Source: Theionarchaea archaeon
Lineage (GTDB): Archaea; Methanobacteriota_B; Thermococci; Methanofastidiosales; SZ-28-30
Reading direction: 5' to 3'
Length of the DNA: 42,215 bases
Assembly (NCBI GenBank): GCA_018992685.1
Contig: JACVGT010000004.1
Coordinates: 1 to 42,215 of the forward strand
Shown: piece by piece, positions 8,456 through 39,384 of the stretch
Layout: every line of letters starts with the position of its first letter
Position numbering within the stretch: position 1 is the stretch's first letter
Notes under the pieces: generated by a model
What the model was told of the DNA's origin: nothing
Seen by the model: only the letters and a program-made list of their open reading frames with translations
Database searches by the model: none
Program-made: the position numbers and the translations under genes

Positions 8456-8568
8456 CTAGTTATAACTCACCTATATCCTTATAAGCTTTTCTGACTAATC
8501 ATTAACTTTAACTAACATGTATAACCGAAAGCTTTATATAGTATTGATTATCAATAATGATTAGATGG

Positions 8569-8730
8569 GATTTCCCCTTCCGCCATATTCTTTCCTCCTA
8601 TGAGTCTGCTTTTAGCACAAAACACGATCCGGGGTAATCCCATTAATACCTTTTGAGGTAGGAGAGAAATGCGGGGTCGAGTAAGGAGGCATAAGGGATC
8701 ACCCAAACGGGAAGGAGGGATCTTCCCTCC
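8569..8730. repeat. Possible degenerate repeat element, copy 2, with end hairpin
   Basis: Begins GATTTCCCCTTCC (8569-8581); AGGAGGCATAAGG recurs at 8684-8696. The right edge carries a perfect 7-bp hairpin, GGAGGGA-TCT-TCCCTCC (8714-8730). CGGGAAGGAGGGATC at the right resembles the reverse complement of the left end of copy 1 (12 of 15), as in a MITE-like element. The hairpin could also serve the end of the minus-strand peptidase gene. Confidence 0.35.
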
Positions 8731-8755
8731 TCTTCCCCAGAATAGGTGCTTTTTT

Positions 8756-18347: not shown

Positions 18348-18363
18348 AGACGTATTGAGAGTG

Positions 18364-20151
18364 ATGATCATGAACGAAACCCACATGTACATAAGGTGGA
18401 GTGAAGATTCCATCTGGGACGAACGTGATGGCAGGGTACTCATCTGTCGCTTACCAGAACTTGATTTTGCGGCTGATTTAAGGATAGGAAAGAATCTCAT
18501 ATGGCTCAATCGTGAAGGATCTCGTGTGTGGAACCTTTGTGATGGGACCCGTACTCTGGAGGGAATAATCTCCCTGCTTCTTGATGCTCATACTGTGGAA
18601 CACGCTGTTCTGGAAAAGGATGTCACAGACCTTGTTCACACCCTGTACCACAGAGGTCTTATCGAATTCAGAGAAGAAAAAGCATCCCCTCCTCACATGC
18701 AGTCCATAGACCGAGGACCTCTGGCGTGGAGCGAAAGCGTTGTGTGGAATGACATGGATGAGGAGGTTGGAATCCTGAACTGCAAAGACGGTAGCATGAT
18801 TGTCTTGGGGTCTTCAGAACGTGAACTGTGGAGAATGTGTGATGGAACTCGCACCGCGAAGGATATTATCGCTGGAATAAAAAGTGAGAAAAACCTGGCG
18901 GAAAACTACGCAATGCTGCTGGCAAGAATCCTCCACAAGCTGGGATTTTTGGTTATTGGACCGAGCGGCGAAGGTATGCAGGAAGCGAGTAGCAAATGGA
19001 GAAAAACGAAGACGGGGAAATACGCTTCGGAACAGGATGCTTCTTCTAGTCATAATCACTTTCTGGTGCAGTATCACATTACGGGGAAATGCAATTTGGG
19101 ATGCCGCCACTGTTACGAAGATGAAAGAATAAAAAAAGAGATTTCCACACGAGATACGATAGCAGTAATTGACAAGTGTTTCGAGACCTTGAATGCTTGG
19201 GGATATGTGGTTCATCTCATTCTCAGTGGGGGGGAACCGCTACTCAGGAATGACTTTTGGGAGATTATGGATCATGCACAGTCTTGTTACAGCCGCAGGT
19301 ACCCCAACACAGTGTCTCTCATGAGCAATGGCACATTACTGGATGAAAGAATAGCGGCGCGGTTATCTGACTACACCGCTTTTGGAGGAGTTCAGATCAG
19401 TCTGGATGGAACAAAAAAAGAAACACACGACAAAATCCGAGGAGAGGGGAGCTTCCAGAAAGCATTGAGAGCTCTAGCCTATTTGAGAGAGAAAAAGATT
19501 GTAACCTCGATTCACTTTGTCGTCCATAGGAAGAACTATGAAGATGCATTTGAGATAGCAGATTTGGCCAGACACTTAAACGTCAACCTCTGTGTTACGA
19601 GACTCGTCCCCTGCGGCAGAGGAAAAGAGATGGAATCCTTCATGTTAACACCACAAGAAGTGTTCGCGTTGTTCAGAAAGTTGAGCCACGACGAAGACGT
19701 TTTATCTGAAGCACGAGCTCGGCACGAGACCTCAACCTCTATTTCACGGTTTCGATGCGACTGGCCAGTCACCTATGCGGGACATGACCGAAAGACTGAT
19801 GAGCTCCGTTATCCATTTACGAAAAACGGTGGGAAGTGCCAGATTGGGAGAGGGCTTCTCACCATTATGCAGGATGGAACAGTCTATCCCTGCAGAAGAT
19901 TGCCCGTTCCTGTTGGAAATCTGCTGGAAGAGAAGTTCCCCGAAATCTGGAATAATGTTTTTTTCTGGAAAATGAGAAGAAAGAATCGTTATATGAAAGG
20001 AAAATGTGCAGAATGTGAATTCAACTGTGATGCGAGCCTTGATTTCTCATGCAGTGGAGGAGCTTCGTGTATTTCACATGGATTTTATGGTGACCCTTTC
20101 CACCCTGATCCTGGATGCCTGTACAACCCGGAGAAAGGCTCATTTGAATAG
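18364..20151 (+). CDS. Radical SAM/SPASM protein with two PqqD-like (RRE) domains
   Basis: 595 residues. Two PqqD-like units come first: about 8-100 (ICRLPELDFAADLRIGKN, NREGSRVWNLCDGTRTLEGI, LYHRGLIEF) and about 115-205 (GILNCKDGSMIVL, SERELWRMCDGTRTAKDI, LHKLGFLVI). PqqD-like folds bind RiPP leader peptides. A Ser/Lys-rich linker leads to the radical SAM domain with C243-NLG-C247-RH-C250 and LSGGEPL. The C-terminal part carries CQIGRGLLTIMQDGTVYPC, CAECEFNC and later cysteines of a SPASM-type region. ATG 18364 or 18370 is the probable start; reading can extend to 18301 but would overlap further into maturase 3. It ends the operon and may recruit the peptide for the whole set. Confidence 0.88.
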   Translation: MIMNETHMYIRWSEDSIWDERDGRVLICRLPELDFAADLRIGKNLIWLNREGSRVWNLCDGTRTLEGIISLLLDAHTVEHAVLEKDVTDLVHTLYHRGLIEFREEKASPPHMQSIDRGPLAWSESVVWNDMDEEVGILNCKDGSMIVLGSSERELWRMCDGTRTAKDIIAGIKSEKNLAENYAMLLARILHKLGFLVIGPSGEGMQEASSKWRKTKTGKYASEQDASSSHNHFLVQYHITGKCNLGCRHCYEDERIKKEISTRDTIAVIDKCFETLNAWGYVVHLILSGGEPLLRNDFWEIMDHAQSCYSRRYPNTVSLMSNGTLLDERIAARLSDYTAFGGVQISLDGTKKETHDKIRGEGSFQKALRALAYLREKKIVTSIHFVVHRKNYEDAFEIADLARHLNVNLCVTRLVPCGRGKEMESFMLTPQEVFALFRKLSHDEDVLSEARARHETSTSISRFRCDWPVTYAGHDRKTDELRYPFTKNGGKCQIGRGLLTIMQDGTVYPCRRLPVPVGNLLEEKFPEIWNNVFFWKMRRKNRYMKGKCAECEFNCDASLDFSCSGGASCISHGFYGDPFHPDPGCLYNPEKGSFE

Positions 20152-23650: not shown

Positions 23651-25891
23651 ATGGACGACAATGGATCAGGGTTGGAAGGAACTAGCGAAGCAGGCGAATT
23701 CGAGTTCTTAGAGGGCATACCTGCAGGTGCCTATGAGGTCGATAAGGAAGGGAATTTCTTGTACTGCAATCAGGAGGCAGCCCACCTGCTTGGATATGAT
23801 TCTGCAGAAGAGTTATCACAAAAGAATATCTATGATCTCTATTTTGATAGAAATGACCGAGAACGGGTATTAGAAAGGACGAGAACCCTTGGAGGTCGGA
23901 TGAAAAGTTACATCCGGTGGAAGCGGAAGAACGGATCTGAAGTGGTGGTCAATGATTTTGCTGAGTTTGTCTGCAACAAAAGGGGTGAAGAATCCGGAAT
24001 TCGTGGCATCTTCGTCGAGGCCACATATGAGCGGTTGTTTGATGATCTTAATGCAGGAATATACCGGGTGGGCCCCGATAACAAGACTATCGAGCTGGTC
24101 AACAAGGCAGTTGCCAGAATCTTTGGATTCAACTCGCCCGAAGAAATGAGAGGATATGACATCTCAAAACTCTACAGATATCCAAAGGATTATCGGGAAT
24201 TCATGGAGTATCTTGAGAAAAATCAGAAAGTAGAGAATTATCCCCTGGAGATGAAAAGAACAGACGGAGAGCCTGTCATTATATCAGTGAGTTGTCACGT
24301 ACTGCAAAATAAACAGGGAGAGATCGTTGGAAGAGAAGGTACATTTACGGATGTCACAGAGCAGCAGAGATATAGAGAATTGCTGGAAATACCATTGGGA
24401 GTCTACGAGGCCAAAATAAAGGATGGCAAGCCGATTATCATCTTCTGTAACGAGAAATTCATTGAGATGTTTGGCTATTCGTCGGAAAAGGAGTTGATTG
24501 GCAGGAATATTCATGAACTGTATGCTAACGAAAAGGACGTTGAACAGTTCGAAAAAGCTTTGAAGGAAGCTGACGAAGAGAACAAGCCTCTCGACTATTT
24601 ACTGAAGGTAAAAAGGAAAGCAAGTCAAAAGGAAGGGGGAGAAAGAGAGGAATTTTGGATCAAGATATATTGCTATCCAAGAGAAGATGAAGAAGGAAAT
24701 ATTATTGGCAGAATAGGAACTGCCATGGATGTTACCGATAGAATGGAACTGGAGAGGATTATCGAAACAAGAAAGGACATACAGAGGTTCATTCACGGAT
24801 TCATTGCGCCAATGATGAGCATTCATGCCACAAGCCAGGTTGTGGCCAGGGAAGTTGAACGTGGAATTGGCATCAGATATGGTCTTGAAGACATGGTGAG
24901 ACTTCAACGGAAAAAACGTAACACGATGCATCTTTTTGATGAGATGAGGACTACATCTGAGGCTCTGGCAGAAAAAATTGGAAACCTCATTACACTGGGT
25001 CGACTTGAACCGGCATTTGATGAAAGACACATCCATGAATTGACGAACATAAAGAACAGTGTGGAAAGAGAAATCACAGACATTGTGCGAAGGATCATTG
25101 AAGTGAGAAAACTACACAAGGATACTTACAGCAAATTGAACGACGTTCTTGCATTCATCAGAACTGAAAGAAGAATTGAAAATAGCAGAGAACTTTCAGA
25201 TCTAATCAAGTTGTGTTTCATTGATCTCGACGAATTAGATAGTACCTACTTACTGTATTTAACGCAGAGCATCCTGAATAAATCCAAAATTGCCTATCAT
25301 GACGTAGAAGGGCTTCGTCAGCTTATGATGAGGGTTGGGGACGAACACATCGAACAGCTCTTCGAATTCCAGCCTACAAACCTCTTAGATATGGTTGAAG
25401 ATACAATTGATATGTATCGGATTGATGCATCCCTTAAAGGCATTTTAATTCGTTCTCCCCGAGGGAAGATACCAGAGGTCGACGTTTCTCGGAGTCACCT
25501 GGAAAGAATGCTCTCGTATGTCATCCAGAATGCAGTAAAATACTCTTTCAAGAGGGATGGCTATATTCATGTTGATTTCAGGGTGGGAGGGGATTCTGTC
25601 CAAATCGATGTAGAAGATTATGGAGTTGGTATTCTTCACGAAGAAATCGAATCCGGCAAAATCTTCGAATACGGATATAGGGGAAAATTCTCCCGTGATC
25701 GTAACAGGACCGGATCAGGCATTGGACTTTCTGAAGCCAAGAGGATTTCTGAGGCCCACGGTGGACATATCAAAGTAGAAAGCGCGCCTGTGGGCGATCA
25801 TGGAGAGGTCATAACTCACAACACACCTCATAAGACGACAATTTCCATATTTCTGCCGATAAGGCAAGAAAAGGGTGATTTGAATGGTTAG
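23651..25891 (+). CDS. Triple-PAS sensor histidine kinase
   Basis: 746 residues, no membrane segment, so cytoplasmic. Three PAS domains in a row: about 18-125 (IPAGAYEVDKEGNFLYCNQEA), about 130-240 (LNAGIYRVGPDNKTIELVNKA) and about 245-375 (IPLGVYEAKIKDGKPIIIFCN). The proposed phospho-acceptor is H382 in RFIHGFIAPMMSI, an H-box variant. A long helical region follows, then the ATPase domain about 580-740 with the N-box VIQNAVKYS, DYGVGI and GSGIGLSEAKRI. It overlaps the response regulator gene by 8 nt. Signals sensed are unknown; soluble PAS domains suggest redox, haem, flavin or small-ligand sensing. It lies between the two peptide loci. Confidence 0.88.
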   Translation: MDDNGSGLEGTSEAGEFEFLEGIPAGAYEVDKEGNFLYCNQEAAHLLGYDSAEELSQKNIYDLYFDRNDRERVLERTRTLGGRMKSYIRWKRKNGSEVVVNDFAEFVCNKRGEESGIRGIFVEATYERLFDDLNAGIYRVGPDNKTIELVNKAVARIFGFNSPEEMRGYDISKLYRYPKDYREFMEYLEKNQKVENYPLEMKRTDGEPVIISVSCHVLQNKQGEIVGREGTFTDVTEQQRYRELLEIPLGVYEAKIKDGKPIIIFCNEKFIEMFGYSSEKELIGRNIHELYANEKDVEQFEKALKEADEENKPLDYLLKVKRKASQKEGGEREEFWIKIYCYPREDEEGNIIGRIGTAMDVTDRMELERIIETRKDIQRFIHGFIAPMMSIHATSQVVAREVERGIGIRYGLEDMVRLQRKKRNTMHLFDEMRTTSEALAEKIGNLITLGRLEPAFDERHIHELTNIKNSVEREITDIVRRIIEVRKLHKDTYSKLNDVLAFIRTERRIENSRELSDLIKLCFIDLDELDSTYLLYLTQSILNKSKIAYHDVEGLRQLMMRVGDEHIEQLFEFQPTNLLDMVEDTIDMYRIDASLKGILIRSPRGKIPEVDVSRSHLERMLSYVIQNAVKYSFKRDGYIHVDFRVGGDSVQIDVEDYGVGILHEEIESGKIFEYGYRGKFSRDRNRTGSGIGLSEAKRISEAHGGHIKVESAPVGDHGEVITHNTPHKTTISIFLPIRQEKGDLNG

Positions 25892-26288
25892 AATCCTGTG
25901 GATTGAGGATGAAGGAAATACTGATCTGATTCAGTATAAGCAGCCCCTGGTAGAGAAGGGACATGTAATAGATGTTGCTGAGACAGCCAAGGAAGCTTTC
26001 GACACAATGGATTGTATGAAATACGATCTCTACATTGTCGATCTGCTTCTGCCCCAGGAGGATGCGTTCGAAGAACACATTGAGCTCCCTGGTGTGGAAA
26101 TATTGAAGAAGATGATCCATCATTACAGGATAGACGCCAGCAAGATCGTTGTCTTCACCGTGGTCAATGATGAGGAGGTGCACAGGGACATTCGGCAGCT
26201 CGGTATCGGCCGAATTATCGTAAAGAGGTTGCAGGACATTGATTTTCTGAAAGTGGAAATCGACAAGATGATCGGAGGAGAGGGGTAA
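25884..26288 (+). CDS. Single-domain response regulator
   Basis: 134 residues consisting only of a receiver domain. The acidic pocket E8-D9-E10, the phospho-acceptor D53 in LYIVDLLLP, the VVFTVVND strand and the conserved lysine in IIVKRLQ are present. There is no output domain, so it must signal through protein contacts, perhaps to the membrane protein encoded immediately after it. ATG 25884 overlaps the kinase stop, so the pair is co-translated. Confidence 0.9.
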   Translation: MVRILWIEDEGNTDLIQYKQPLVEKGHVIDVAETAKEAFDTMDCMKYDLYIVDLLLPQEDAFEEHIELPGVEILKKMIHHYRIDASKIVVFTVVNDEEVHRDIRQLGIGRIIVKRLQDIDFLKVEIDKMIGGEG

Positions 26289-26289
26289 T

Positions 26290-27666
26290 GTGGTAGTCAA
26301 GAGGTGGAATGCAACAATCTTTTTCTTCATTGTTCTTACCATAGGCCTTGTTATTGTGACAATGTTCAAGTGGGACGGGAGAATCCCGTACCAGACTGAT
26401 TTGATACTCATCGGGTTTATTGGATCGCTCGCCACTATATCGGCTCTCATTTTCACGATTCCTCTCTTTTTCAGAAGTTCACGAGAAGGAACCATCTACC
26501 CCGGGACAGACGAAAACCTGGTTATTTGTTACTTGTTGATGTTCATACTGGGCATTTTTTCAAGTCTTCTTACGCTCTTCATTGAAAAGAATACGGGGGT
26601 TTTTGTAGGTTTTTTGGGCAGGGACTTTGAGCTAGGATTATTCTTTTTCAAGTTGAGTGTGGTCATCTTTTTGATCTGTCTTGTCTGGCTAGTTCCCTAC
26701 CTTTTCATATTCCTCAGGAGAGATTCGTTGAAAGTGATAGCTCATCTCAGGAATTCCATTCTTGACAAGGTGAGTCATGTCTCCCAGAGGGATGCGAGAA
26801 GGACAGAAGAGGCCATAAAGAAAGAGATTAACCGGTTAGAAAGGGTCATACTGCAGGTACTGAGCAGTCACAACTACATAGCACTGGACTATGGTATTTC
26901 GAGTCTCATGGACATAACGGGCACGATCATCGGGAAACCCAGAAAGCGTAGTAGATTCATGAGGATTCTTGAAAAAGCTTTGAGAGAGTCTCCCGCAAAC
27001 AATACAGTCGGGAATACCCTTCTAAAAGAGATCATGAGATCATTTCGTGATGTGAGCATTGCTTGTATTGAATGCAGGTCTGATGAGTATTCGCGGCGAA
27101 TTGGAAAGTACATGAAGGAAGTCATTATGGACGGACTGAGAACGAGACAGAATCTTGAATATCCAAACCTCGTATTGAATATTGAACGACTGGGAGCTCA
27201 AGCTGCGAGGAACAACCTTGAAGAGACCACAGATGAAATCCTCAACAGTCTCGGTCAAATAGGTGATCAGAGCATTACAGTCGATTTGCTTCGTTCTCCA
27301 ATTAAGGCTGTTCTTAAGGGTCTTCAAGAGATCGCAATCGTGTGTACAGAGGAGAAAATGGTCTGTCAATGTGCTACAGCGAGAACCCGGATTCTGGGAA
27401 TTGCGCGACGAGGGGGCGCACCCATACAAGAGGAAGCATTGAGACGGTTCTGGGTGGTGACTGCCTTCATGTACAGGAATATTCCGGAAATTACAGAAGC
27501 CAGCTACGGGCTGGAGACTATGTTGGGAAGAGAATTTGGCAGTCTGTTTTTTGAACAGCTTAACGAGTCACTCGAAATGCTTCATAGGGAAAGCGAATGG
27601 GTAAGAAAACGAATAGTCAGGGTGTTCATGAACTCAGCAGAATTCTCCACGATTCGTGCAGAGTAG
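26290..27666 (+). CDS. Membrane protein of unknown function in kinase operon
   Basis: 458 residues; GTG start with GGAGGAGAGGGG just upstream and one base after the regulator's stop. Four hydrophobic segments lie in the first 145 residues (8-26, 37-61, 78-101, 114-147). The remaining about 310 residues are a cytoplasmic helical region (ARRTEEAIKKEINRLERVIL and repeated helix pairs) without a motif I recognise. The layout is reminiscent of DUF2254-type membrane proteins but I would not assign it. Operon position makes it the likely target or partner of the regulator that lacks an output domain. Confidence 0.7.
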   Translation: MVVKRWNATIFFFIVLTIGLVIVTMFKWDGRIPYQTDLILIGFIGSLATISALIFTIPLFFRSSREGTIYPGTDENLVICYLLMFILGIFSSLLTLFIEKNTGVFVGFLGRDFELGLFFFKLSVVIFLICLVWLVPYLFIFLRRDSLKVIAHLRNSILDKVSHVSQRDARRTEEAIKKEINRLERVILQVLSSHNYIALDYGISSLMDITGTIIGKPRKRSRFMRILEKALRESPANNTVGNTLLKEIMRSFRDVSIACIECRSDEYSRRIGKYMKEVIMDGLRTRQNLEYPNLVLNIERLGAQAARNNLEETTDEILNSLGQIGDQSITVDLLRSPIKAVLKGLQEIAIVCTEEKMVCQCATARTRILGIARRGGAPIQEEALRRFWVVTAFMYRNIPEITEASYGLETMLGREFGSLFFEQLNESLEMLHRESEWVRKRIVRVFMNSAEFSTIRAE

Positions 27667-29080: not shown

Positions 29081-29212
29081 ATAGTGTGAAAGCTCAGTAT
29101 TCTGTCAGTATGAGCAATTAGAATACTTGCATGTGAAACCAGTTTTCTTTTGAATTAGAAATAATAAACATAAATATCTAAAAAGACATTAATTCATCAA
29201 AAGAGGGAAAAG

Positions 29213-29222
29213 CTTATAAATA
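29213..29222 (+). promoter_or_regulatory. TATA box of second precursor gene
   Basis: CTTATAAATA preceded by the purine-rich GGGAAAAG (possible BRE). Start expected near 29243, leader about 47 nt. Shares TTATAAATACT with the promoter of the first precursor. Confidence 0.7.
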
Positions 29223-29290
29223 CTTAGGGTAATTCTAACAACGGAATCTAGGTCAGATTCTGTAGCACAAAATCAACGGAGGTGAAACCA

Positions 29291-29377
29291 ATGTATGCAA
29301 AACCCATGCTGGAAGAGATTACTGTTAGGATTACAGCTGACAAGTGGCTCATTAGTCTGCCTGCTTTACCCTACTAA
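29291..29377 (+). CDS. Short PqqA-like RiPP precursor peptide
   Basis: 28 residues. The ribosome binding site GGAGGTGA (29278-29285) sits 5 nt before the ATG, the strongest in this part of the window. The peptide starts MYAKPMLEEITVRI and ends DKWLISLPALPY. The M-x-x-K-P-x-[L/F] opening is like PqqA and other leaders read by PqqD-type RREs; the end with a C-terminal Tyr brings the mycofactocin precursor (ending Val-Tyr) to mind, though the sequences are otherwise unlike. Downstream genes supply a SPASM enzyme, a stand-alone PqqD, two B12 radical SAM enzymes, a protease and an exporter. Likely modified residues are W, L, P and Y of the last ten. It is an inference from context and signals. Confidence 0.75.
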   Translation: MYAKPMLEEITVRITADKWLISLPALPY

Positions 29378-29393
29378 GCCAACCAACGCTGTA

Positions 29394-29420
29394 TTTCTTT
29401 ACTTTCTATTTTTTTTATTT
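29394..29420 (+). terminator. T-rich partial terminator after precursor 2
   Basis: An eight-T run (29409-29416) inside a pyrimidine-rich stretch starts about 17-30 nt after the precursor stop. Archaeal RNA polymerase stops at such tracts. No promoter of its own was seen before the next gene, so this may act as a valve that gives more precursor than enzyme. Confidence 0.5.
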
Positions 29421-29473
29421 CCAATTAAAGAAATCTCTCTTAATCAGAATTCCTTGGATACTGGACGAGCCAG

Positions 29474-30613
29474 ATGAATGTACAGATGGCAGAAGAAAGT
29501 GGTGCAATGAACAAAGGTGGACTTAGTTTTGCGGACTGGGATGTCACCCCGCACTGTAACCTCAATTGCAGACACTGCTATGCAACATCTCTGTACAGAG
29601 GAAACCAGACAGAGCTGTCCACAGAGGAAATGATGTGCATTCTGGAGAATCTCTGTCGTCTGCCTGTTGCAAATATTGGGATGTTTGGAGGAGAACCTCT
29701 GCTCCGAAAAGACCTTGTACAGATAGTGCAGCAATGTGCCCATAAGAATTCGAATCCATATATCATAACCAATGGACTCCTTCTCACTCAGGACCGATTG
29801 GAATCGTTAATAGAAGCAGGACTCAAAGGCGTTGCAGTGAGTATTGACGGGGCCTCCGAAGAGACCTATTCATATATTCGTCGGGGAAGTGACTTTGGCG
29901 TGGTGACTCGGAATGTGTCAGTCATCAACACATATTCTCTTGAATCACTCGTGATGGACGTGGTCGTTTCAAAGATCAATGCCCACGAGATTGCAGCACT
30001 CATTGGGATGGCCAAGAACTTGGGGTTCACCCGGGTTATACTGGAAATGCTATCTTATCAGGGAAATGCAGCTACAATGGAACGCAGTGTTATCCTTTCT
30101 CCTCTGGAATTCATTCATCTCGCCGAGACTGTCGTTGAAACCCTTATTCAGCTTGACATGAGTTGTGAATTCGTTACCATGTTGTTCGCCATGCCCCCCT
30201 TGATTGACTACTTGAATGATAAGTATGATACTCATCTGCCAAGAGAGCCAAAGAAATGCGCCGCTACAATTTCAACTATATTCATCCGCGCTGACGGGAC
30301 TGCTTATCCCTGCAAAGGTGCAATCCCGGACATGACTCTCAAGGATCACGATGTATATGTCAGTCACGGCAGCAGTCTCCTCGAGAACAGTATTATCGAA
30401 ATCCTGGGCTCTGAGGATTTTGAGCGATTGTTTTATATGCAATCTCCAAATATGATAGCAGAATATCTCCCGAAATGCAGTGATTGTGATTTCTTCCCCA
30501 AAATATGCGTACCATGTCCGATTGCTGCCATGGACCCAGGGAAGGAATTTGCAGAGATCTGCGAGGACTATCCTGTAGGGAGGATTTGTGAAGAGATAAG
30601 GTGTATGAGGTGA
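29474..30613 (+). CDS. Radical SAM/SPASM maturase of peptide locus 2
   Basis: 379 residues. Radical SAM motif C28-NLN-C32-RH-C35 near the N-terminus, then MFGGEPLLRKDL, ITNGLLLT and AVSIDGASEETYSYIR, typical of PqqE/MftC-like SPASM enzymes. The C-terminal region has KKCAATISTIFIRADGTAYPC followed by CSDCDFFPKICVPC and ICEDY, sufficient for auxiliary clusters. There is no built-in RRE, which fits the separate PqqD-like gene 6 nt downstream. The start is uncertain: ATG 29474, 29486 and 29507 are all possible and none has a strong ribosome binding site. Predicted to act on the 28-residue precursor encoded just upstream. Confidence 0.88.
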   Translation: MNVQMAEESGAMNKGGLSFADWDVTPHCNLNCRHCYATSLYRGNQTELSTEEMMCILENLCRLPVANIGMFGGEPLLRKDLVQIVQQCAHKNSNPYIITNGLLLTQDRLESLIEAGLKGVAVSIDGASEETYSYIRRGSDFGVVTRNVSVINTYSLESLVMDVVVSKINAHEIAALIGMAKNLGFTRVILEMLSYQGNAATMERSVILSPLEFIHLAETVVETLIQLDMSCEFVTMLFAMPPLIDYLNDKYDTHLPREPKKCAATISTIFIRADGTAYPCKGAIPDMTLKDHDVYVSHGSSLLENSIIEILGSEDFERLFYMQSPNMIAEYLPKCSDCDFFPKICVPCPIAAMDPGKEFAEICEDYPVGRICEEIRCMR

Positions 30614-30619
30614 AAAGAA

Positions 30620-30895
30620 ATGGAAGATACAGCTAGACCAAAAAAGGTTCCACACGTCCGGCCGCGTGAACAGGGGGACGATCTGGCCCTCTTTAATGTG
30701 ATGACTGCCCAGTACTTTGTGGTCAACGAAGTTGGACGTGAGATCTGGAACCTCTGTACAGGCGAGCTTACTGTCAAAGAGATTGCGCAGGAAATTCACA
30801 CCAGAATAGAGGGTGCTCCTTCATTTGAAGAAGTCCTGACTGACGCCAAGGAACTGATTGAGGATTTGAAGAACAACAATCTGGTGACAGTCTAA
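30620..30895 (+). CDS. PqqD-like RiPP recognition element (stand-alone)
   Basis: 91 residues, the usual size of PqqD. Pattern: DDLALFNVMTAQYFVVNEVGREIW (beta strands and first helix), then LCTGELTVKEIAQEI and the winged-helix end LIEDLKNNNLVTV. PqqD proteins hold the precursor leader for the radical SAM enzyme. ATG 30620 has GAGGTGAA five bases upstream, 6 nt after the maturase stop. Position between a SPASM enzyme and B12 radical SAM enzymes makes it the shared peptide carrier of the operon. Confidence 0.9.
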   Translation: MEDTARPKKVPHVRPREQGDDLALFNVMTAQYFVVNEVGREIWNLCTGELTVKEIAQEIHTRIEGAPSFEEVLTDAKELIEDLKNNNLVTV

Positions 30896-30916
30896 CCAAA
30901 GAAGGAGGAGATCTGA

Positions 30917-32254
30917 ATGACAGACATTACCCTCGTAAATGCAGTGATCGGTGCAAGCAGAGGGCAGCTGGGCATTGGCCTGCTGTATATAGTTGCATCT
31001 CTGGAAGAAGCAGGGTATTCCGTGGAGTTCACGGACTACCAAAATGAGGATGTGAAGAGAAAAGCAGATCCAAAGGTGCTTGCGCAGTTTATGAAATCTT
31101 CTGCATCAGTTATCGGTATTAGTGTTTTCTGCAATGCACTGCCCTCCGTGATAAAGGCTGTGAACCTCCTGAAAGAGAGACAGGACGTAACAGTTATCCT
31201 CGGGGGACCTGCTGCCTCTGTGAGTACAGAACGAATCCTTGAACTCTCTGAGGTTGACATCGCAGTCATTGGTGAAGGCGAAAGGGCTATTGTGGAGATC
31301 ATGGAGGCTCTGGATACGGGCAGGTCCCTCGATTCAGTAAGGGGCATCTGCTACAGAGACAACGGCCACGTTGTAACCACACCGGAGCGAGAACGAATTG
31401 CCGATCTGGATTCCGTCCCCTTTCCGGCTTATCACCACATCGATTTTGGAGAATACAGGAGGGAGGCGAATCTGATAACCGCCAGGGGATGCCCCTTCCG
31501 GTGTACCTTCTGTGTCAAATCTATTTGGAAAAGCAGGAAAACATTTCGTTCTATTGAGAATGTTATAGAGGAATTACTGCAAATCGAAGGGAGTATTGAC
31601 AGGATCAATTTATCTGATGACACCTTCGTTCTTGAAAGGGAGAGAGTACAGGAATTCTGCGAACACCTCAAGAAAGAAGGCATTGACAAGGACTGGTCTT
31701 GCACGGGCAGAGTCGGCATGTTGCCGGATTCGCTCATGGAATCCATGCACCGCGCGGGATGCGATACCATGTTTCTAGGAATAGAATCAGGGTCGAGCTC
31801 TATCCTCAAGAAGATAAAAAAGGATTTTACCCCGGAAGAGGCAAGGAGAGATATTGCGCGGGCGAGACAGCACTTCGACAGGATTTACACGTCCTACATG
31901 TGGGGATTTCCTGAAGAGTCTCTGGATGATTTCTATGATACCATGATGTTTCAGATGGAAGATGTCCAGATTCCAGGAGTCCAGCCAGTCATGACCCTCG
32001 TGACGCCATTTCAGTCCACGACACTGTACAGTGAATATTCCCACACCATCAAATTCATGACAGACAACACATATAATGGGTCCACATTACCACCACCTGA
32101 AAGGCTGAGAGGCTATCCTGAACTAGAGGATCTGGTAAGGAAGAATCCAGATGTGTTCAGCTCATTCTATTATTACGAGAATGAAGGATTTGAGGAAAAA
32201 TGCACACTAGTTGACAAGATAAGGGAAAGAGAGAAGAGTGAGGGATCTGCATGA
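30917..32254 (+). CDS. B12-binding radical SAM enzyme A of peptide locus 2
   Basis: 445 residues. N-terminal cobalamin-binding Rossmann-like domain, about 1-150: GIGLLYIVASLEEAGYSVEFTDYQ, VIGISVFCNALPSVIKAV, TVILGGPAAS, IAVIGEGERAIVEIM. The DxHxxG base-off histidine motif is absent. The linker IADLDSVPFPAYHHI leads to the radical SAM domain with C192-PFR-C196-TF-C199 and FRSIENVIEELL. This is the B12-dependent methylase/rearrangement group (P-methylase, BchE and relatives). In a RiPP operon it would C-methylate or otherwise alter unactivated carbons. ATG 30917 has AAGGAGGAGAT; its stop overlaps the next gene as ATGA. Confidence 0.87.
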   Translation: MTDITLVNAVIGASRGQLGIGLLYIVASLEEAGYSVEFTDYQNEDVKRKADPKVLAQFMKSSASVIGISVFCNALPSVIKAVNLLKERQDVTVILGGPAASVSTERILELSEVDIAVIGEGERAIVEIMEALDTGRSLDSVRGICYRDNGHVVTTPERERIADLDSVPFPAYHHIDFGEYRREANLITARGCPFRCTFCVKSIWKSRKTFRSIENVIEELLQIEGSIDRINLSDDTFVLERERVQEFCEHLKKEGIDKDWSCTGRVGMLPDSLMESMHRAGCDTMFLGIESGSSSILKKIKKDFTPEEARRDIARARQHFDRIYTSYMWGFPEESLDDFYDTMMFQMEDVQIPGVQPVMTLVTPFQSTTLYSEYSHTIKFMTDNTYNGSTLPPPERLRGYPELEDLVRKNPDVFSSFYYYENEGFEEKCTLVDKIREREKSEGSA

Positions 32255-33651
32255 GCGATATACTGATTGTAAACTCGGGATTTGGTGAATATAGACCGGG
32301 TCTTCCCATAGGCCCCTTGGAGATAGTCTCTGTTCTGGAAGAGAATGGATTCTCGGTGGATTTCAAAGACTATCAACTTCATGACCCCACACACCACCCG
32401 GACCCGGATGAATTCTACTCCTTCATGAATCCCACATCAGACATTGTGGGTATCAGCGTCATCTGCAATGCACTGCCAACAGTCCTGGGTGCTGTGGAAA
32501 AGCTGAAAGAAGAGCATCCGGATACGCTGGTGATTTTGGGAGGACCTGCTGCCACCGATGTGGGAGGAAGGATCTTGGAGTGCTATCCTGTTGATGTCAT
32601 CGTCATGGGAGAAGGCGAATACACGACGGTGGAATTGGTGGAAGCCCTGCAAGAGGGGACTCCGCTGGATCAGATCAAGGGCATCGTCTACAGGGAGGAT
32701 GGCCGAGTCATAATCAACCCGCTGCGGGAAAGAATCAAGAACCTGGATTCCCTACCGTTCCCTGCGTATCATCATGTCAACTTTGCTGACTATCAGAAGC
32801 TGGCCTGCATTATGAGTGCACGTGGATGCCCTTACGATTGTGGGTTCTGCAGTGCGCATTCCATCTGGCAGCGTCACATGGAGTACAGATCAGTGGAAAA
32901 CATAGTTGAGGAAGTCCTGCAGGTGGCGGACGATTCCATCATGCTCGGATTCCTCGATGACACGTTTGTCATACAGAAAAAACGCGCTATGGATATTATA
33001 GATGCAATCCGCGCTGAAGGTGTGGACCTCCCCTATACATGCAATGGAAAAATAACGTTAATGGATGATGAACTCCTGATGAAACTCTCTGAAACAGGAT
33101 GTTTCCAGCTCTTCTATGGTGTCGAGTCCGGATCCAATAGAGTCCTTCAGATGCTGCATAAAGGACACACGATAGAACAGGCACGAGAGGTTATACGAAA
33201 GACCGTGACCTACAACTTTGAACGGGTACGTACCTCGTACATCTGGGGGTTTCCCTTTGCGACCCTTGAGGAGTTTTATGACACACTGATGTCCATGGGA
33301 GAGGACATTCGCCTCAAGAAGGCAGTTACCCAGATGTCACTTCTCTCTCCATTGCCGAGTTCGCCAATTTTCCAGGGGCACAGCCACCTCCTGAACTTTG
33401 ACGCCACAATTCAGTCCAGAGCCGGTGGTCTCCCGATCAAACAGTCGTTAAAGAACTATCCTCGTGTCATTGAAATGATCAAGGAACATCCGCATGTTTT
33501 TTCGAGTTTCTATTATTATGATCATCCAGAATTCAGAAAGAAACTGGAGACAATTTCCAAGATAGACTGGAAGATCTGGGAAGTTGAGAGTGAGGAGGAA
33601 CTCCTTAAAAAGAAACAGAATCCTGAGGCAAGAGGGGGATCAGAGGAATGA
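32251..33651 (+). CDS. B12-binding radical SAM enzyme B of peptide locus 2
   Basis: 466 residues, paralog of the gene before it. Cobalamin domain: LPIGPLEIVSVLEENGFSVDF, VGISVICNALPTVLGAVEKL, VILGGPAATDVG, VIVMGEGEYTTVELV. Radical SAM motif C193-PYD-C197-GF-C200 followed by SAHSIWQRHMEYRSVENIVEEVL. The DAH/N-terminal base-off motif is again missing. It ends in a lysine/glutamate-rich tail and overlaps the membrane protease gene (ATGA). Two adjacent, non-identical B12 enzymes suggest two methylations or two different carbon targets on the peptide. Confidence 0.87.
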   Translation: MSDILIVNSGFGEYRPGLPIGPLEIVSVLEENGFSVDFKDYQLHDPTHHPDPDEFYSFMNPTSDIVGISVICNALPTVLGAVEKLKEEHPDTLVILGGPAATDVGGRILECYPVDVIVMGEGEYTTVELVEALQEGTPLDQIKGIVYREDGRVIINPLRERIKNLDSLPFPAYHHVNFADYQKLACIMSARGCPYDCGFCSAHSIWQRHMEYRSVENIVEEVLQVADDSIMLGFLDDTFVIQKKRAMDIIDAIRAEGVDLPYTCNGKITLMDDELLMKLSETGCFQLFYGVESGSNRVLQMLHKGHTIEQAREVIRKTVTYNFERVRTSYIWGFPFATLEEFYDTLMSMGEDIRLKKAVTQMSLLSPLPSSPIFQGHSHLLNFDATIQSRAGGLPIKQSLKNYPRVIEMIKEHPHVFSSFYYYDHPEFRKKLETISKIDWKIWEVESEEELLKKKQNPEARGGSEE

Positions 33652-34526
33652 GATACTCAGCAGAAAAGTATCCCCTCCAGGTCCGGATAATGACGCTCGT
33701 GGCCTCCGTTCTTTCTCATCCCATCTGTGGTAAGGTAACAGGAGTGCTTCTGATGGCTATCCCTCTCAGCGTCATACTCTTTCAAATTGCATCCTCTTTC
33801 TCAATACCCCGCATGTCCACTGTGTTGCTGGTGATACCCCTGACCTACGGTGGTCTTTTTCTGGCGGCATTCCTCCATGAGATGGGACATGTTGCTGTCC
33901 TGCGATCTCTGGGGTGCAGGACAAGAACACAGGTCCTGTACAACTACCACAATCCCCTGCTCCTCTTCAACATGCGTACAGAAATGACAGAAGATCATCC
34001 CATACATTCCTCCACAATCTTTCTACTGAAACGAGGACTTTCAGGTATCTCGGTGAATATTTTGCTGAATGTAGTGTTTCTTGCACTGTCTATTCACTAC
34101 CATAATGTATTCTTTGGTTATCTTGCGTTTCTTCAGGGATTTGGCTCTCAAGGGGCTACGTCTCTGTCTCCCACCACAGGAGATTCAGACGTACGCACAC
34201 TGGTCACTGCAATCGAAGTCCGTGATGAACTGACCGCCACTTTAGAGGAGAAGGATGATCTTGTTTTGGATATTAAGGTAGGGATATTTCTTAGAAACGT
34301 GATCGAGACTACCTACTGGATTCTGGTTGAAGGATTGGACATTTCACATGCAGAACACAAGAATTTTTTGGCATTTGACGTACCGGGTGGCATTATGTTC
34401 TTACTGCGCTGTCTTGAGCAGGATTCTCTCACTCTTACTATACATGGAACCTCTTCAAGGGACATAACCATATATACGAGGGGAGGCAGAATTCTCTCAA
34501 TTCCTGCCAGTTCAAAGGAGGTGTAG
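33648..34526 (+). CDS. M50-type membrane metalloprotease
   Basis: 292 residues. Several membrane segments (about 33-50, 58-78, 132-150, 152-170). The zinc motif HEMGH is at residues 77-81 (H77, E78, H81) inside the second segment, as in site-2 proteases; TTGDSDVR at about 181-188 may supply the third ligand Asp. The C-terminal 90 residues (EEKDDLVLDIKVGIFLRN, ITIYTRGGRIL) form a soluble domain I do not recognise. Encoded between the B12 enzymes and the exporter, it is the best candidate for removing the leader from the modified peptide at the membrane. Start ATG overlaps the previous stop. Confidence 0.8.
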   Translation: MRYSAEKYPLQVRIMTLVASVLSHPICGKVTGVLLMAIPLSVILFQIASSFSIPRMSTVLLVIPLTYGGLFLAAFLHEMGHVAVLRSLGCRTRTQVLYNYHNPLLLFNMRTEMTEDHPIHSSTIFLLKRGLSGISVNILLNVVFLALSIHYHNVFFGYLAFLQGFGSQGATSLSPTTGDSDVRTLVTAIEVRDELTATLEEKDDLVLDIKVGIFLRNVIETTYWILVEGLDISHAEHKNFLAFDVPGGIMFLLRCLEQDSLTLTIHGTSSRDITIYTRGGRILSIPASSKEV

Positions 34527-34528
34527 TT

Positions 34529-35773
34529 GTGACTACTAAAGTAGAAAATCCAAACCAAAAAGGAACAGAAGAGAAGAAGAAATCCACGATCCTCAGGGAC
34601 AAGAATTTCTTATTGCTATGGGCTGGGCAAGGAGTATCTCAGGCAGGAGATTGGATTTATCTCCTTGCTATGGTTTCTTTTGTTATTGCCCTGACAGGCT
34701 CCGCTGCAGTAACGGGGACCGTCTTGATGGTGATGGTGATCCCACAGATTTTCTTGGGTCCGATAGCAGGAAGCTATGCTGATAGGTGGAGCCGCAAGAA
34801 ACTCATTGTGTGGATGGATGCAGTGAGAGGAGTGGTTACCCTGTATCTTGGATGGCTCGTGGTGAATGATAGCTTGACACTTCCTGTTCTCTACGTGGGG
34901 ACAGCTATCATGTCAGTGGCTCAAGTTTTCTTCAACCCTGCATTGAGGGCATCTATTCCAACTATTGTTCCCGAAGACGAATTGAATCGTGCAAACAGCC
35001 TGATAGGAATGACATCGAAGATTTCTGGCGTCATAGGACCCGCAGTTGGTGGTGTTCTGGTGATAACCCTGGGCATTCCTTTGGCTTTCATTATCAACGG
35101 GCTATCGTTTTTGTTCTCTGCTTTTTCAGAGTCTTTCATCACAATACCCCTGGTCAGACGCGAAGGCCCGGAAAAGCATATCCTGGCGGACATGAGGGAA
35201 GGGTTCCAATTCATCAAAGAAAAAAAGGCCATTCTGGGTATTATCATAATCCTGGGAGCAATGACGTTCTTTGCAGCACCCCTGGTGATCGTTTTCAAGA
35301 TTCTATCTCAGACCTACTATCACATGGGTGATATAGGATACGGATTTCTGATTAGCGCAGATTCCCTGGGTATTCTGGTGTCAACGTTCATCCTTGCTGT
35401 CAAACCGACGATAGAAAACAAATCCAGAGTTCTCATCTTGTTCCCCATTGTGGCTGGGTTGACGTTGCTGGGAATTGGCACAGTGATAAACTTCTACTTT
35501 GCCGTGGCTCTCATGGCTATTCAGGGAATTATCAGCGGATTTGGTGAGATCGTCATAATCACTCTTCTTCAAACGCTGACTCCGAATGAAAAACGTGGCA
35601 AGGTGTTTGGCGTCTATGTTACGATGACCATGGCACTGGTTCCCATATCCTATGCTATCCTGGGTGCTCTCATTGACATGACATCTGTCCTCACCATGCT
35701 ACTCATCTCGGGGAGTGCGCTCATTATTGGAGGAATTTGTATCTCCTTCGTCCCGGGTATCAGAGAACTTTAG
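34529..35773 (+). CDS. MFS exporter of peptide locus 2
   Basis: 414 residues, about 12 membrane segments. Opens with ILRDKNFLLLWAGQGVSQAGDWIYLLAM and has GSYADRWSRKKLIVWMDAVRG between helices 2 and 3, the form of the EntS-like MFS_3 group that exports siderophores and other natural products. Helix 5 region reads GPAVGGVLVITLG. The GTG start at 34529 has AAAGGAGGTG upstream, inside the end of the protease gene. As the last gene of the operon it is the likely exporter of the finished product, or of a resistance substrate. Confidence 0.88.
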   Translation: MTTKVENPNQKGTEEKKKSTILRDKNFLLLWAGQGVSQAGDWIYLLAMVSFVIALTGSAAVTGTVLMVMVIPQIFLGPIAGSYADRWSRKKLIVWMDAVRGVVTLYLGWLVVNDSLTLPVLYVGTAIMSVAQVFFNPALRASIPTIVPEDELNRANSLIGMTSKISGVIGPAVGGVLVITLGIPLAFIINGLSFLFSAFSESFITIPLVRREGPEKHILADMREGFQFIKEKKAILGIIIILGAMTFFAAPLVIVFKILSQTYYHMGDIGYGFLISADSLGILVSTFILAVKPTIENKSRVLILFPIVAGLTLLGIGTVINFYFAVALMAIQGIISGFGEIVIITLLQTLTPNEKRGKVFGVYVTMTMALVPISYAILGALIDMTSVLTMLLISGSALIIGGICISFVPGIREL

Positions 35774-35913: not shown

Positions 35914-37266
35914 TCAGGATTCTTGGGCTCTTAACATATTCTGCTCCATGTTCTTGAACAGTTCCAGTTTCTGTTGGAGCAAATCGTGAGAAAAGTAGTA
36001 GAAGGATGGGAAGAGTTCAGGATATTTCTTGACCAGTGCAACCACTTCGGAGTATTGAAGGAGTTTTTCCCTGCCCAGCAGAAATCCGAGCCGATGGGCA
36101 ATTTCAGGGTCATTGGGAAATTTGATGTGGGCCTTGTATTCCATGTAGATGGTGGACTTTGGCAAGGGGGAAAGCAAAGCGAGCCGAGGTTTCACATGAG
36201 GCATGTTGGCTTGTTGAAAGACGGCCATCAGTGTGTCGTAGAAATCTTCAAGCGTCTCAAAGGGGTATCCCCAGATATACGATGTCTCCACATCTGTGTA
36301 GTGCGTCGTCTTCTCTATGACTCTTGAAGCTTCCTCAATTGTGAATTTTTTGTTGACCTTTTTCAAAACATTATTGGAGCCAGATTCTATTCCATACAAT
36401 ATCTCCCTGCACCCATTCTTGCCCATGACTTCCAGCAATTCCGGAGTCATCAAATTAATTCTTCCGTAACAGGTCCATGGAATGTCTATACGTTCTTCAT
36501 GAAGCTGTTCTGCAAAGTGAACAACTCGTTTCGGGTCAATCACGAAGGTATCATCATAGATGAACATGTTCTTGACTTTCTTTTCTTTCAGGATCTGGAG
36601 TTCTCCAATGACATTTCCCACACTTCTTTGAGTTATCTCTCTTTCCCACACAGAATGAGCGCTGCAAAAAGTACACCGATAGGGACATCCGCGGATCGTC
36701 ATCACCCCACCAACATAGTCGTAATCTCTGAATTCGATTTTGTCATATGCTGGGAACGGCAGGGAGTCAAGGTCTTGGATGCGCCTCCTCCGTGGAGTAA
36801 GGATAGTGTGATCATGCTCTCTATATGCAATGCCATCGATTTTCTCAAGGCTCCTGCCTGTGTCAAGGGCCTGCATTACGTCCAGTATTGTCTCCTCTCC
36901 TTCACCCACGACAACAATGTCTACAGGAAAGTGCTCCAGTATCTCTACAGGAATATCTGTAGGACCAGGTCCTCCCAGGATGATGATCTTATCTGGATGT
37001 TCGTTCTTCAGTTGCGCGACTGCTCCAAGCGTGGTAGGCAAGTCACTGCTAATGGCACTTATTCCTACGATTCTTTCAGGGACCTCTATGAACCCATGGA
37101 ACGTGTCAAAACCGAGTTTCTTCTGGGCTTGGTACGTCTGGTAGTCCTTGAATCGAACACTGTATCCATTAGCCTCAAGGACAGCAGTAATGAGCAGGGG
37201 GCCCACGGGAATGGCACCCTGACTGTGCTCGACCTGTGACGCATTGATGATGCTTATGTCACTCAT
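35914..37266 (-). CDS. B12-binding radical SAM enzyme C, convergent to peptide locus 2
   Basis: 450 residues, start ATG 37266 with GGAGGAG upstream (an upstream reading extension to 37407 lacks a ribosome binding site and would cross the promoter). Cobalamin domain: IPVGPLLITAVLEANGYSVRFKDYQ, VGISAISSDLPTTLGAVAQL, IIILGGPGPTDIP, IVVVGEGEETILDVM. Radical SAM motif C194-PYR-C198-TF-C201, then SAHSVWEREITQRSVGNVI. It is closest by eye to enzyme B of the operon (shared SAHS[IV]W stretch and FAYD/YHH linker). It has its own promoter. Its proximity suggests a third tailoring step or paralog from the same duplication series. Confidence 0.85.
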   Translation of the reverse strand: MSDISIINASQVEHSQGAIPVGPLLITAVLEANGYSVRFKDYQTYQAQKKLGFDTFHGFIEVPERIVGISAISSDLPTTLGAVAQLKNEHPDKIIILGGPGPTDIPVEILEHFPVDIVVVGEGEETILDVMQALDTGRSLEKIDGIAYREHDHTILTPRRRRIQDLDSLPFPAYDKIEFRDYDYVGGVMTIRGCPYRCTFCSAHSVWEREITQRSVGNVIGELQILKEKKVKNMFIYDDTFVIDPKRVVHFAEQLHEERIDIPWTCYGRINLMTPELLEVMGKNGCREILYGIESGSNNVLKKVNKKFTIEEASRVIEKTTHYTDVETSYIWGYPFETLEDFYDTLMAVFQQANMPHVKPRLALLSPLPKSTIYMEYKAHIKFPNDPEIAHRLGFLLGREKLLQYSEVVALVKKYPELFPSFYYFSHDLLQQKLELFKNMEQNMLRAQES

Positions 37267-37798: not shown

Positions 37799-37824
37799 TA
37801 TAAAAAGTTAAGGAGGTGAAAATA

Positions 37825-39384
37825 ATGAGGATAAGTCGAAAGGTTTTATTTCTAGCCACGCTACTCTTACTGCTTTTTTCCTTCGCTGCAGCTGGCCAAG
37901 GATCCCGGAAAATAACTCTTCATGTACAGACAATGGGATACAAGGGAAGAGATCTTCTGGTAGTACAGGCTGAAATCACGGGGGAAGACCACGACTCATT
38001 CTTGGTGACCATCAGCAGAGACACCTTGTGCAAGATAGAAAAGGAGATCAACATTGAGAGATTGCCTGTTGTGAGAGTCAGTGAAACCACAGTGAAGGTT
38101 CCCAAGGATTACCTTGTTGAGATCAGCCCATCTGAATTTGTGGCTACGGTCCCCAATGATGTGGCCAGAATCAGGTGGAACCTCAGAGACAGAATGATCA
38201 ACACAAGCCCTGATGAAAAACTGCGTGTCATTGTCATGTTCAAAAATGGAAAGAATGTTTCGTTGCTCAGGAAATATGGTACTATTGTCTATGAATTTGC
38301 CAGTGGATTGGGAGCTACCGTCGATATCCCTGCTTCTCGCGTCAATTTGCTCTCTGAAGACCGTGCAGTGCTTTTCCTGGAAGATGATTTTGACGTACAG
38401 GTCATGTTGTCACAGAGCGTACCCTTGATTAATGCAGACGATGTATGGAACATGGGTTATGATGGCTCAGGTGTCAAGATCTGCCTCATCGATACGGGCA
38501 TTGATCCTAACCATTGTGATTTTCCCAGTGGAAAAATCATAGCCTGGAGAGATGTTGTGAACTCCAGCACGACCCCCTACGATGACCATGGTCACGGTAC
38601 ACATGTTGCGTCCATTGCTGCGGGAGAGACCTCGCCAAAGGGTGTGGCGCCTGGGGCTTCTCTCATGTGCTTCAAGGCAGTGAATTCCAGCGGATCATCT
38701 ACTGCAACCCAGGTCATTCAAGGTGTTGACTGGGGCGTGTACAATGGAGCTGATATCGAGAGCCTTTCCATTGCCACGTCCACAGGCTGCAATGATGGGA
38801 CCAGTTCGATGTCTCAGGAGTGCAACTGGGCCGTTGACCAAGGTGTCGTGCTGGTGGTGGCTGTTGGAAACGGCGGAAACGTGTGTACTATCGGTATACC
38901 TGGAGATGCGGAAAAGGTTATTACAGTGAGTGCCTGTGACAATTCTAAGAATCTGGCATCTTTCTGTTCAAGAGGGCCAACCTGTGATGACAGGGCTAAA
39001 CCAGATGTCGTGGCACCCGGAGTATCTGTGTATGCTGCTGATGCTGGAACGTCCTGCAGTAACGTTGCCATGTCTGGAACGTCCATGTCGACGCCTCATG
39101 TTTCAGGGATTGTTGCTCTCATGCTTGATGCACGACCTGGCTTGACCCCTCTGCAGGTCAAGAACGTACTGGGATTCACTGCAACAGACATGGGAACTGA
39201 AGGAAAGGATCTCAGCTGGGGCTGGGGTATCGTTGATGCATACAATGCTGTGAATCAGGCGCTTTACAACCCGAATGTAACTCCTCCAGCCCGTACTGAA
39301 TGGTGTGCTGGCTGCTGCGGGTGTCTAGGAACGGTGTTGATCGTATTCATGGTTCTCGTGGGAAGTGCAGTCACACTACGTTAG
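37825..39384 (+). CDS. Secreted, membrane-anchored subtilisin-like protease
   Basis: 519 residues. ATG 37825 has AAGGAGGTGA five bases upstream. Signal peptide at 5-25 (RKVLFLATLLLLLFSFAAAG). A propeptide-like region (about 60-200) is followed by the S8 catalytic domain: D223 in CLIDTGID, H257 in GHGTHVAS, the oxyanion Asn region AVGNGGN, and S420 in SGTSMSTPHVSG. The C-terminus has a Cys cluster WCAGCCGC and then a membrane segment GTVLIVFMVLVGSAV, so the enzyme is probably tethered outside the cell. It may be a general protease; a role in cutting the peptide product of the neighbouring locus is possible but only suggested by nearness. Confidence 0.9.
   Translation: MRISRKVLFLATLLLLLFSFAAAGQGSRKITLHVQTMGYKGRDLLVVQAEITGEDHDSFLVTISRDTLCKIEKEINIERLPVVRVSETTVKVPKDYLVEISPSEFVATVPNDVARIRWNLRDRMINTSPDEKLRVIVMFKNGKNVSLLRKYGTIVYEFASGLGATVDIPASRVNLLSEDRAVLFLEDDFDVQVMLSQSVPLINADDVWNMGYDGSGVKICLIDTGIDPNHCDFPSGKIIAWRDVVNSSTTPYDDHGHGTHVASIAAGETSPKGVAPGASLMCFKAVNSSGSSTATQVIQGVDWGVYNGADIESLSIATSTGCNDGTSSMSQECNWAVDQGVVLVVAVGNGGNVCTIGIPGDAEKVITVSACDNSKNLASFCSRGPTCDDRAKPDVVAPGVSVYAADAGTSCSNVAMSGTSMSTPHVSGIVALMLDARPGLTPLQVKNVLGFTATDMGTEGKDLSWGWGIVDAYNAVNQALYNPNVTPPARTEWCAGCCGCLGTVLIVFMVLVGSAVTLR

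What the first reader, a model, noticed from the sequence alone, without database searches (positions are those of the whole stretch)
29291..35773. Second RiPP operon with a new gene combination (mini-precursor, SPASM, PqqD, two B12 radical SAM, M50 protease, MFS)
Seen: seven genes in tight order, several with ATGA overlaps. Known: PQQ and mycofactocin systems start from a tiny peptide bound by PqqD and altered by a SPASM enzyme. Here two B12 radical SAM enzymes, an S2P-like protease and an EntS-like exporter are added. Inference: it makes a heavily modified, exported small peptide or a peptide-derived cofactor not described so far.
Basis: partly seen in the sequence, partly recalled or inferred. 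Interest (0 to 1): 0.92.

Follow-up and report, generated by a model that had tools for sequence, protein, structure and literature searches.

The report
Archaeal peptide-modifying radical SAM operon
An uncultured sediment archaeon carries a real, evolutionarily conserved set of genes that makes a 28-residue peptide, probably remodels it with radical and vitamin-B12 chemistry, cuts it and exports a piece, in a gene combination that we did not find described.

Summary
The operon is real. The window is contig C10 of an archaeal genome whose only congeneric relative is a Theionarchaea MAG. Seven genes run in tight order at 29291-35773, with two ATGA overlaps. The 28-aa ORF (MYAKPMLEEITVRITADKWLISLPALPY) is a genuine gene: in the sister species it is 26/28 identical, 12 of 15 base differences fall at third codon positions (dN 0.04, dS 1.6), and promoter, Shine-Dalgarno site and a T-rich block after it are conserved. 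SPASM, PqqD, B12 radical SAM and MFS calls hold; the protease call is weak (HEMGH in a membrane region; Pfam M50 E=0.14). No relative of the SPASM enzyme (E<=1e-35) or protease (E<=1e-3) was found in 113 other genomes of the phylum. It is a PqqD/SPASM RiPP-type pathway but fails NCBIfam cut-offs for PqqE, mycofactocin, ApyD and others; the peptide has no cysteine, so sacti/ranthipeptide thioethers are excluded. Most likely the C-terminal LPALPY end is modified, clipped and exported; product and steps are inferred. New variant of a known kind.

The parts
29208..29223 (+). BRE/TATA-like archaeal promoter element AAAAGCTTATAAATAC
   Evidence: identical in the sister species within a conserved non-coding stretch; reading it as a promoter is inference
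29241..29263 (+). inverted repeat / hairpin in the presumed 5' leader (GGAATC...GATTCT)
   Evidence: kept in the sister with one A-U to G-U type change; fold energies only mildly better than shuffles (z -1.7 and -1.3), so weak
29291..29377 (+). precursor peptide gene, 28 aa, MYAKPMLEEITVRITADKWLISLPALPY, with GGAGGTGA ribosome-binding site
   Evidence: 26/28 aa identical in the sister, 12 of 15 differences at codon position 3, dN 0.039, dS 1.62; no second copy in either genome
29398..29420 (+). T-rich block TTTACTTTCTATTTTTTTTATTT just after the precursor, candidate partial terminator
   Evidence: 23 of 23 bases identical in the sister while the spacer downstream has drifted; function inferred
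29507..30613 (+). radical SAM/SPASM enzyme (long form from 29474); CxxxCxxC plus seven further conserved SPASM cysteines
   Evidence: Pfam Radical_SAM 2.3e-23, SPASM 1.4e-5; 81% identical ortholog; conserved Cys 28, 32, 35, 262, 280, 335, 338, 345, 348, 363
30620..30895 (+). stand-alone PqqD-type RiPP recognition element, 91 aa
   Evidence: Pfam PqqD 9.8e-12; 84% identical ortholog
30917..32254 (+). cobalamin-binding radical SAM enzyme a
   Evidence: Pfam B12-binding 6.5e-18, Radical_SAM 3.6e-20; best NCBIfam model ApyD 168 bits, cut-off 750
32251..33651 (+). cobalamin-binding radical SAM enzyme b
   Evidence: Pfam B12-binding 7.5e-12, Radical_SAM 4.8e-20; ApyD 173 bits, cut-off 750
33648..34526 (+). 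membrane protein with HEMGH motif, probable M50-like protease
   Evidence: HEMGH at residues 77-81 conserved in the sister, directly after a hydrophobic segment at 58-76; Pfam M50 E 0.14 and daptide_HExxH E 0.0069, both below cut-off; model unusable, pLDDT 39.5
34529..35773 (+). MFS exporter, EntS/macrolide-efflux type
   Evidence: MFS_1 5.8e-33, MFS_3 4.4e-28; TIGR00900 3.6e-70, EntS 1.6e-37, both below their cut-offs
   Evidence: 41-44% identical to the other two, ortholog at the same place in the sister; Pfam B12-binding 1.7e-12

Best explanation
This is a RiPP-type pathway of an uncultured Theionarchaea-related archaeon. A short transcript makes much of the 28-aa precursor, and part of the polymerases read on into the enzyme genes (inferred from the conserved promoter and T-rich block). 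PqqD binds the peptide and presents it to the SPASM enzyme, which makes a radical change in the C-terminal part (a C-C cross-link, or oxidation/decarboxylation of the terminal Tyr; inferred from PqqE and MftC). Two or three paralogous B12 radical SAM enzymes then add carbon, most simply by methylating unactivated carbons near the C-terminus (inferred from ApyD and TmoD). The HExxH membrane protein releases a small C-terminal fragment and the MFS protein exports it. Shown: the conserved precursor, the gene set, its conserved order and the enzymes' metal-binding motifs. Inferred: all chemistry, the cleavage site, export and biological role.
For: Precursor under strong purifying selection and found only at this operon in the two genomes. 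Full synteny in the sister contig, JACVGW010000101.1. Domain calls. A stand-alone PqqD next to a SPASM enzyme and a tiny peptide is the arrangement of PQQ; PqqD is the trans recognition element there (PMC8326336). The B12 enzymes score best or nearly so against the RiPP enzyme ApyD, a Tyr C-beta methylase acting next to the C-terminus (PMC10635010). A B12 radical SAM enzyme plus a membrane M50 protease that clips the modified C-terminal residue from a carrier peptide is known from the pearlin cluster tmo (PMC9303977; PMC10885120). EntS- and Mef-like MFS proteins export small molecules, which suits a small fragment (plus general knowledge). The genus holds 15 and 17 PqqD-domain loci against at most 4 in any other genome of the phylum, so peptide-modifying systems are plentiful in this lineage.
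Against: Only two species carry it, so the leader/core boundary cannot be placed. The protease assignment is weak and its model unusable. B12 radical SAM enzymes do many reactions, and B12+PqqD also occurs in this genus without a precursor in another cluster (C18), so some of these enzymes might act on something other than the peptide. No product has been observed.
Confidence: 0.72

Rival explanations
1. The product is an intracellular peptide-derived redox cofactor like PQQ or mycofactocin, made from the terminal Tyr (with Pro or the Leu/Val before it); the MFS protein has a housekeeping or self-protection role.
For: C-terminal Tyr conserved, stand-alone PqqD plus SPASM, peptide of PqqA/MftA size, position 26 an aliphatic residue (L/V) in both species. 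Mycofactocin is built from the C-terminal Val-Tyr by one SPASM enzyme (PMC8326336).
Against: PqqE and mycofactocin rSAM models are missed by far (104 vs 381 and 86 vs 265 bits); the precursor matches no NCBIfam model; neither cluster has B12 enzymes (general knowledge); an exporter in the operon speaks for secretion. Dedicated cofactor-using dehydrogenases were not searched for.
Confidence: 0.2
2. The peptide is a carrier in the pearlin manner: a single C-terminal residue is remodelled and clipped off and the scaffold is re-used.
For: Carrier peptide + B12 radical SAM + membrane M50-type protease is the tmo logic; a nearly invariant peptide suits a scaffold.
Against: No PEARL-type (PF04738) gene was detected in either genome, although the control did not ring, so this is inconclusive; no MNIO gene in the cluster.
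Confidence: 0.25
3. The mature product is a longer secreted modified peptide (bacteriocin or signal), with the protease and exporter as in epipeptides.
For: Epipeptides combine a radical SAM enzyme with an M50 intramembrane protease thought to cleave and export.
Against: Peptide only 28 aa with little room for leader plus core; MFS rather than ABC exporter; no immunity gene recognised.
Confidence: 0.3
4. The small ORF is a coincidence and the enzymes act on a non-peptide substrate.
For: A PqqD+B12 radical SAM cluster without precursor exists in the same genomes (C18/C49).
Against: Third-position bias, dN/dS about 0.02 and a different stop codon (TAA/TAG) in the two species; strong ribosome-binding site; unique to this operon.
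Confidence: 0.03

Closest known systems
PQQ biosynthesis (PqqA-PqqD-PqqE)
   Same: tiny precursor, stand-alone PqqD, SPASM radical SAM enzyme
   Different: PqqE and PqqD equivalog models below cut-off; no precursor model match; no PqqB/PqqC in the operon; B12 enzymes, HExxH membrane protein and MFS added
Mycofactocin (MftA-MftB-MftC...)
   Same: short precursor ending in Tyr, PqqD-like protein, SPASM enzyme
   Different: rSAM model 86 of 265 bits; no MftA match; no MftD/E/F in the operon; B12 enzymes present
Aminopyruvatide (ApyD)
   Same: B12 enzymes a, b and c all score best to ApyD, which makes beta-methyltyrosine near the C-terminus
   Different: scores 168-177 against a cut-off of 750; no MNIO, P450 or methyltransferase; ApyD carries its own RRE
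Pearlins, 3-thiahomoleucine cluster tmo
   Same: carrier peptide, B12 radical SAM enzyme, membrane M50 protease releasing the C-terminal residue
   Different: no PEARL ligase detected (inconclusive), no MNIO; SPASM, PqqD and MFS added
Epipeptides (EpeX/EpeE/EpeP)
   Same: radical SAM enzyme with M50-type membrane protease
   Different: longer precursor with a 32-aa leader; no PqqD, no B12 enzymes, ABC exporter (general knowledge)
Ranthipeptides and sactipeptides, the rSAM RiPP classes reported for archaea (PMC12144867)
   Same: SPASM enzyme with a PqqD-type element
   Different: precursor has no cysteine, so no thioether is possible

Membership tests
RiPP pathway (general) | a genetically encoded, conserved precursor peptide beside the modifying enzymes | tested here: met
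RiPP pathway (general) | recognition element (RRE/PqqD) | tested here: met
   Pfam PqqD 9.8e-12
RiPP pathway (general) | enzymes shown to modify the peptide | not testable with these tools
   needs expression and mass spectrometry
PQQ biosynthesis | PqqE equivalog (TIGR02109) | tested here: not met
   103.8 of 381.35 bits
PQQ biosynthesis | PqqA precursor model | tested here: not met
   no NCBIfam match up to E 10
Mycofactocin | MftC equivalog (TIGR03962) | tested here: not met
   85.5 of 265 bits
Mycofactocin | MftA precursor model | tested here: not met
   no NCBIfam match up to E 10
Aminopyruvatide | ApyD equivalog (NF050148) | tested here: not met
   168, 173 and 177 of 750 bits
Aminopyruvatide | class-defining MNIO enzyme in the cluster | tested here: not met
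   no MNIO domain among the genes of the locus
Pearlins | PEARL ligase (Lant_dehydr_N, PF04738) | tested here: inconclusive
   no match in either genome, but the control genomes did not ring either
Pearlins | membrane M50 protease acting on the C-terminus | tested here: inconclusive
   HEMGH motif present, family scores below cut-off
Sactipeptides / ranthipeptides | cysteine in the core for a thioether | tested here: not met
   no Cys in either precursor
M50 (S2P-like) protease | Pfam Peptidase_M50 above gathering score | tested here: not met
   12.0 of 27.2 bits
M50 (S2P-like) protease | HExxH motif in or beside a transmembrane segment | tested here: met
   HEMGH at residues 77-81 next to a hydrophobic segment 58-76, conserved in the sister
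Cobalamin-dependent radical SAM enzymes | B12-binding plus radical SAM domains with CxxxCxxC | tested here: met

The most novel reading that the evidence does not exclude
The first archaeal pathway in which a small, exported molecule or cofactor is built on the C-terminal residues (LPA[L/V]PY) of a 28-residue carrier peptide by a SPASM enzyme and up to three B12 radical SAM enzymes and then clipped off by a membrane metalloprotease: pearlin-like logic without a PEARL ligase, mycofactocin-like start without mycofactocin enzymes.
Probability: 0.35. Interest if true: 0.8.

Novelty: new variant of a known kind. Interest (0 to 1): 0.58.

Why it matters
Few archaeal RiPP products are known; the scarcity of identified ones is stated in PMC12144867. 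This locus gives a compact, complete and testable set of genes with unusually dense radical chemistry per residue: one SPASM and up to three B12 radical SAM enzymes for 28 residues without cysteine. The lineage as a whole holds 15-17 PqqD-domain loci per genome, far above its relatives, so it is a promising place to look for new peptide chemistry or a new peptide-derived cofactor.

Tried and rejected
Chance small ORF: rejected by codon-position bias and dN/dS. Sactipeptide/ranthipeptide: rejected, no Cys. PQQ, mycofactocin and ApyD membership: rejected by curated cut-offs. AlphaFold model of the HExxH protein from a two-sequence alignment: pLDDT 39.5, not used for any fold search. PDB profile search with the same protein: only chance hits. 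The two cross-phylum scans of genome contigs for the SPASM enzyme found only the sister contig, but used few peptide patterns. Precursor-like peptides elsewhere in the phylum: only chance-level matches, best E 0.08 with an internal stop. The C18/C49 cluster with PqqD and several B12 enzymes was examined as a possible second copy and rejected: PqqD follows the promoter directly, without a precursor. The GNAT gene upstream and the S8 protease downstream were considered as parts and rejected: the first is absent from the sister, the second has only 53-62% identical relatives.
Full report
OBSERVATION. The ORF list and the sequence confirm seven genes on the + strand at 29291-35773. Gaps are 129, 6, 21, -4, -4 and 2 bases. 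The first is a 28-codon ORF after GGAGGTGA. Pfam names the next four genes Radical_SAM+SPASM, PqqD, and B12-binding+Radical_SAM twice, and the last one MFS. The sixth protein of the operon (33648-34526) has no Pfam family at E<=1e-3.

ORGANISM. The window is G000:C10, all 42215 bases of that contig, in a 3.03-Mb genome of 45 contigs, 91% complete. Its only held congener (G001) has the matching contig C73, 8170 bases. NCBI places that class in the archaeal Methanobacteriota.

THE PRECURSOR IS REAL. The sister contig carries MYAKPRLEEITVRITADKWLISLPAVPY against MYAKPMLEEITVRITADKWLISLPALPY. Of 15 base differences 12 are at third positions; dN 0.039, dS 1.62, the lowest dN of any gene in the locus (0.054-0.184 for the others). 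The other frames are broken. The peptide occurs once per genome and nowhere else in the phylum beyond chance. The promoter-like AAAAGCTTATAAATAC, the hairpin in the leader and a 23-base T-rich block right after the ORF are conserved too. That the T-rich block lowers transcription into the enzyme genes, so that more peptide than enzyme is made, is inference.

EXTENT OF THE LOCUS. The sister has the same order and also a third B12 radical SAM gene, convergent downstream (window 35914-37266). The paralogs in the locus are 41-44% identical to enzyme a, while orthologs are 81-90% identical. A more distant paralog (37-39%) lies at G001:C59; the other B12 radical SAM proteins of the two genomes that were compared are 26-33% identical. 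Beyond, conservation stops: the GNAT gene at 27735 is absent from the sister, and the S8 protease at 37816 has only more distant relatives.

DISTRIBUTION. With the SPASM alignment (E<=1e-35) and the HExxH-protein alignment (E<=1e-3), only these two genomes of 115 in the phylum match. Two scans of the cross-phylum genome set found only the sister, with limited sensitivity. PqqD domains number 15 and 17 in the two genomes and at most 4 in any other listed genome of the phylum, so this lineage is rich in such systems.

WHAT THE PARTS SAY. The SPASM enzyme keeps the CxxxCxxC and seven further cysteines (262, 280, 335, 338, 345, 348, 363) that fit two auxiliary clusters. The B12 enzymes keep CxxxCxxC and a cobalamin domain; their best curated match is ApyD, far below its cut-off. 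ApyD puts a methyl group on C-beta of a Tyr beside the C-terminus of its peptide (PMC10635010). The HExxH protein has HEMGH next to a hydrophobic segment and is the fastest-evolving part (72% identity). Family scores are weak (M50 E 0.14, daptide protease E 0.0069) and the model failed, so 'M50-like protease' is probable, not shown.

MECHANISM. PqqD presents the peptide to the SPASM enzyme, as PqqD does for PqqE (PMC8326336). The B12 enzymes add carbon, as TmoD and ApyD do. A membrane M50 enzyme cuts off the modified end, as TmoG and TglG do (PMC9303977, PMC10885120). The MFS protein exports a small product. Only the genes, their conservation and their motifs are shown; the chemistry is inferred. 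Lack of cysteine excludes thioether peptides.

NOVELTY. No named family takes it: PqqE, MftC, ApyD and precursor models fail. A survey of archaeal RiPPs lists YcaO-related RiPPs, ranthipeptides, sactipeptides, lanthipeptides and lasso peptides; neither of two such papers mentions Theionarchaea in its main text (PMC12144867, PMC10105419). None of the papers listed by the combined search mentions Theionarchaea together with RiPP terms. It is a new variant of a known kind. The product could be a new cofactor or a pearlin-like small molecule, which is open.

Noticed in passing
window 13962-14156 and 14203-20151: The first RiPP-type cluster in the window: a 64-aa Cys-rich candidate precursor (ending KCGGCACGCFVVNCMGLSAC, preceded by GGAGGTG) before four SPASM-type radical SAM genes in a row, the last with a PqqD domain.
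   Followed up: partly
G000 and G001, whole genomes: 15 and 17 PqqD-domain loci per genome against at most 4 in other listed genomes of the phylum, with about 25 places similar to the SPASM enzyme in G000: a RiPP-rich archaeal genus.
   Followed up: partly
L063 (G000:C18:27000-41000) and L066 (G001:C49:20000-34000): A conserved cluster of PqqD plus several B12 radical SAM genes without a precursor, beside what reads like a PIG-L-type deacetylase gene (not tested) and an MFS gene, suggesting PqqD use outside RiPPs.
   Followed up: partly
L074 (G000:C3:80000-92000, 4593-9456) and L064 (G000:C17:6000-20000, 6199-9630): Further SPASM + PqqD + B12 radical SAM gene groups with different order, so the combination recurs in this genome.
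   Followed up: no
window 37816-39384: Subtilase-like S8 protease gene with at least six paralogs of 53-59% identity in the same genome: a lineage-specific expansion of secreted proteases.
   Followed up: no
window 23651-27666: Multi-PAS sensor-kinase-like gene, a response-regulator gene overlapping it by 8 bases and a membrane protein of no known family form a likely signalling unit just upstream.
   Followed up: no
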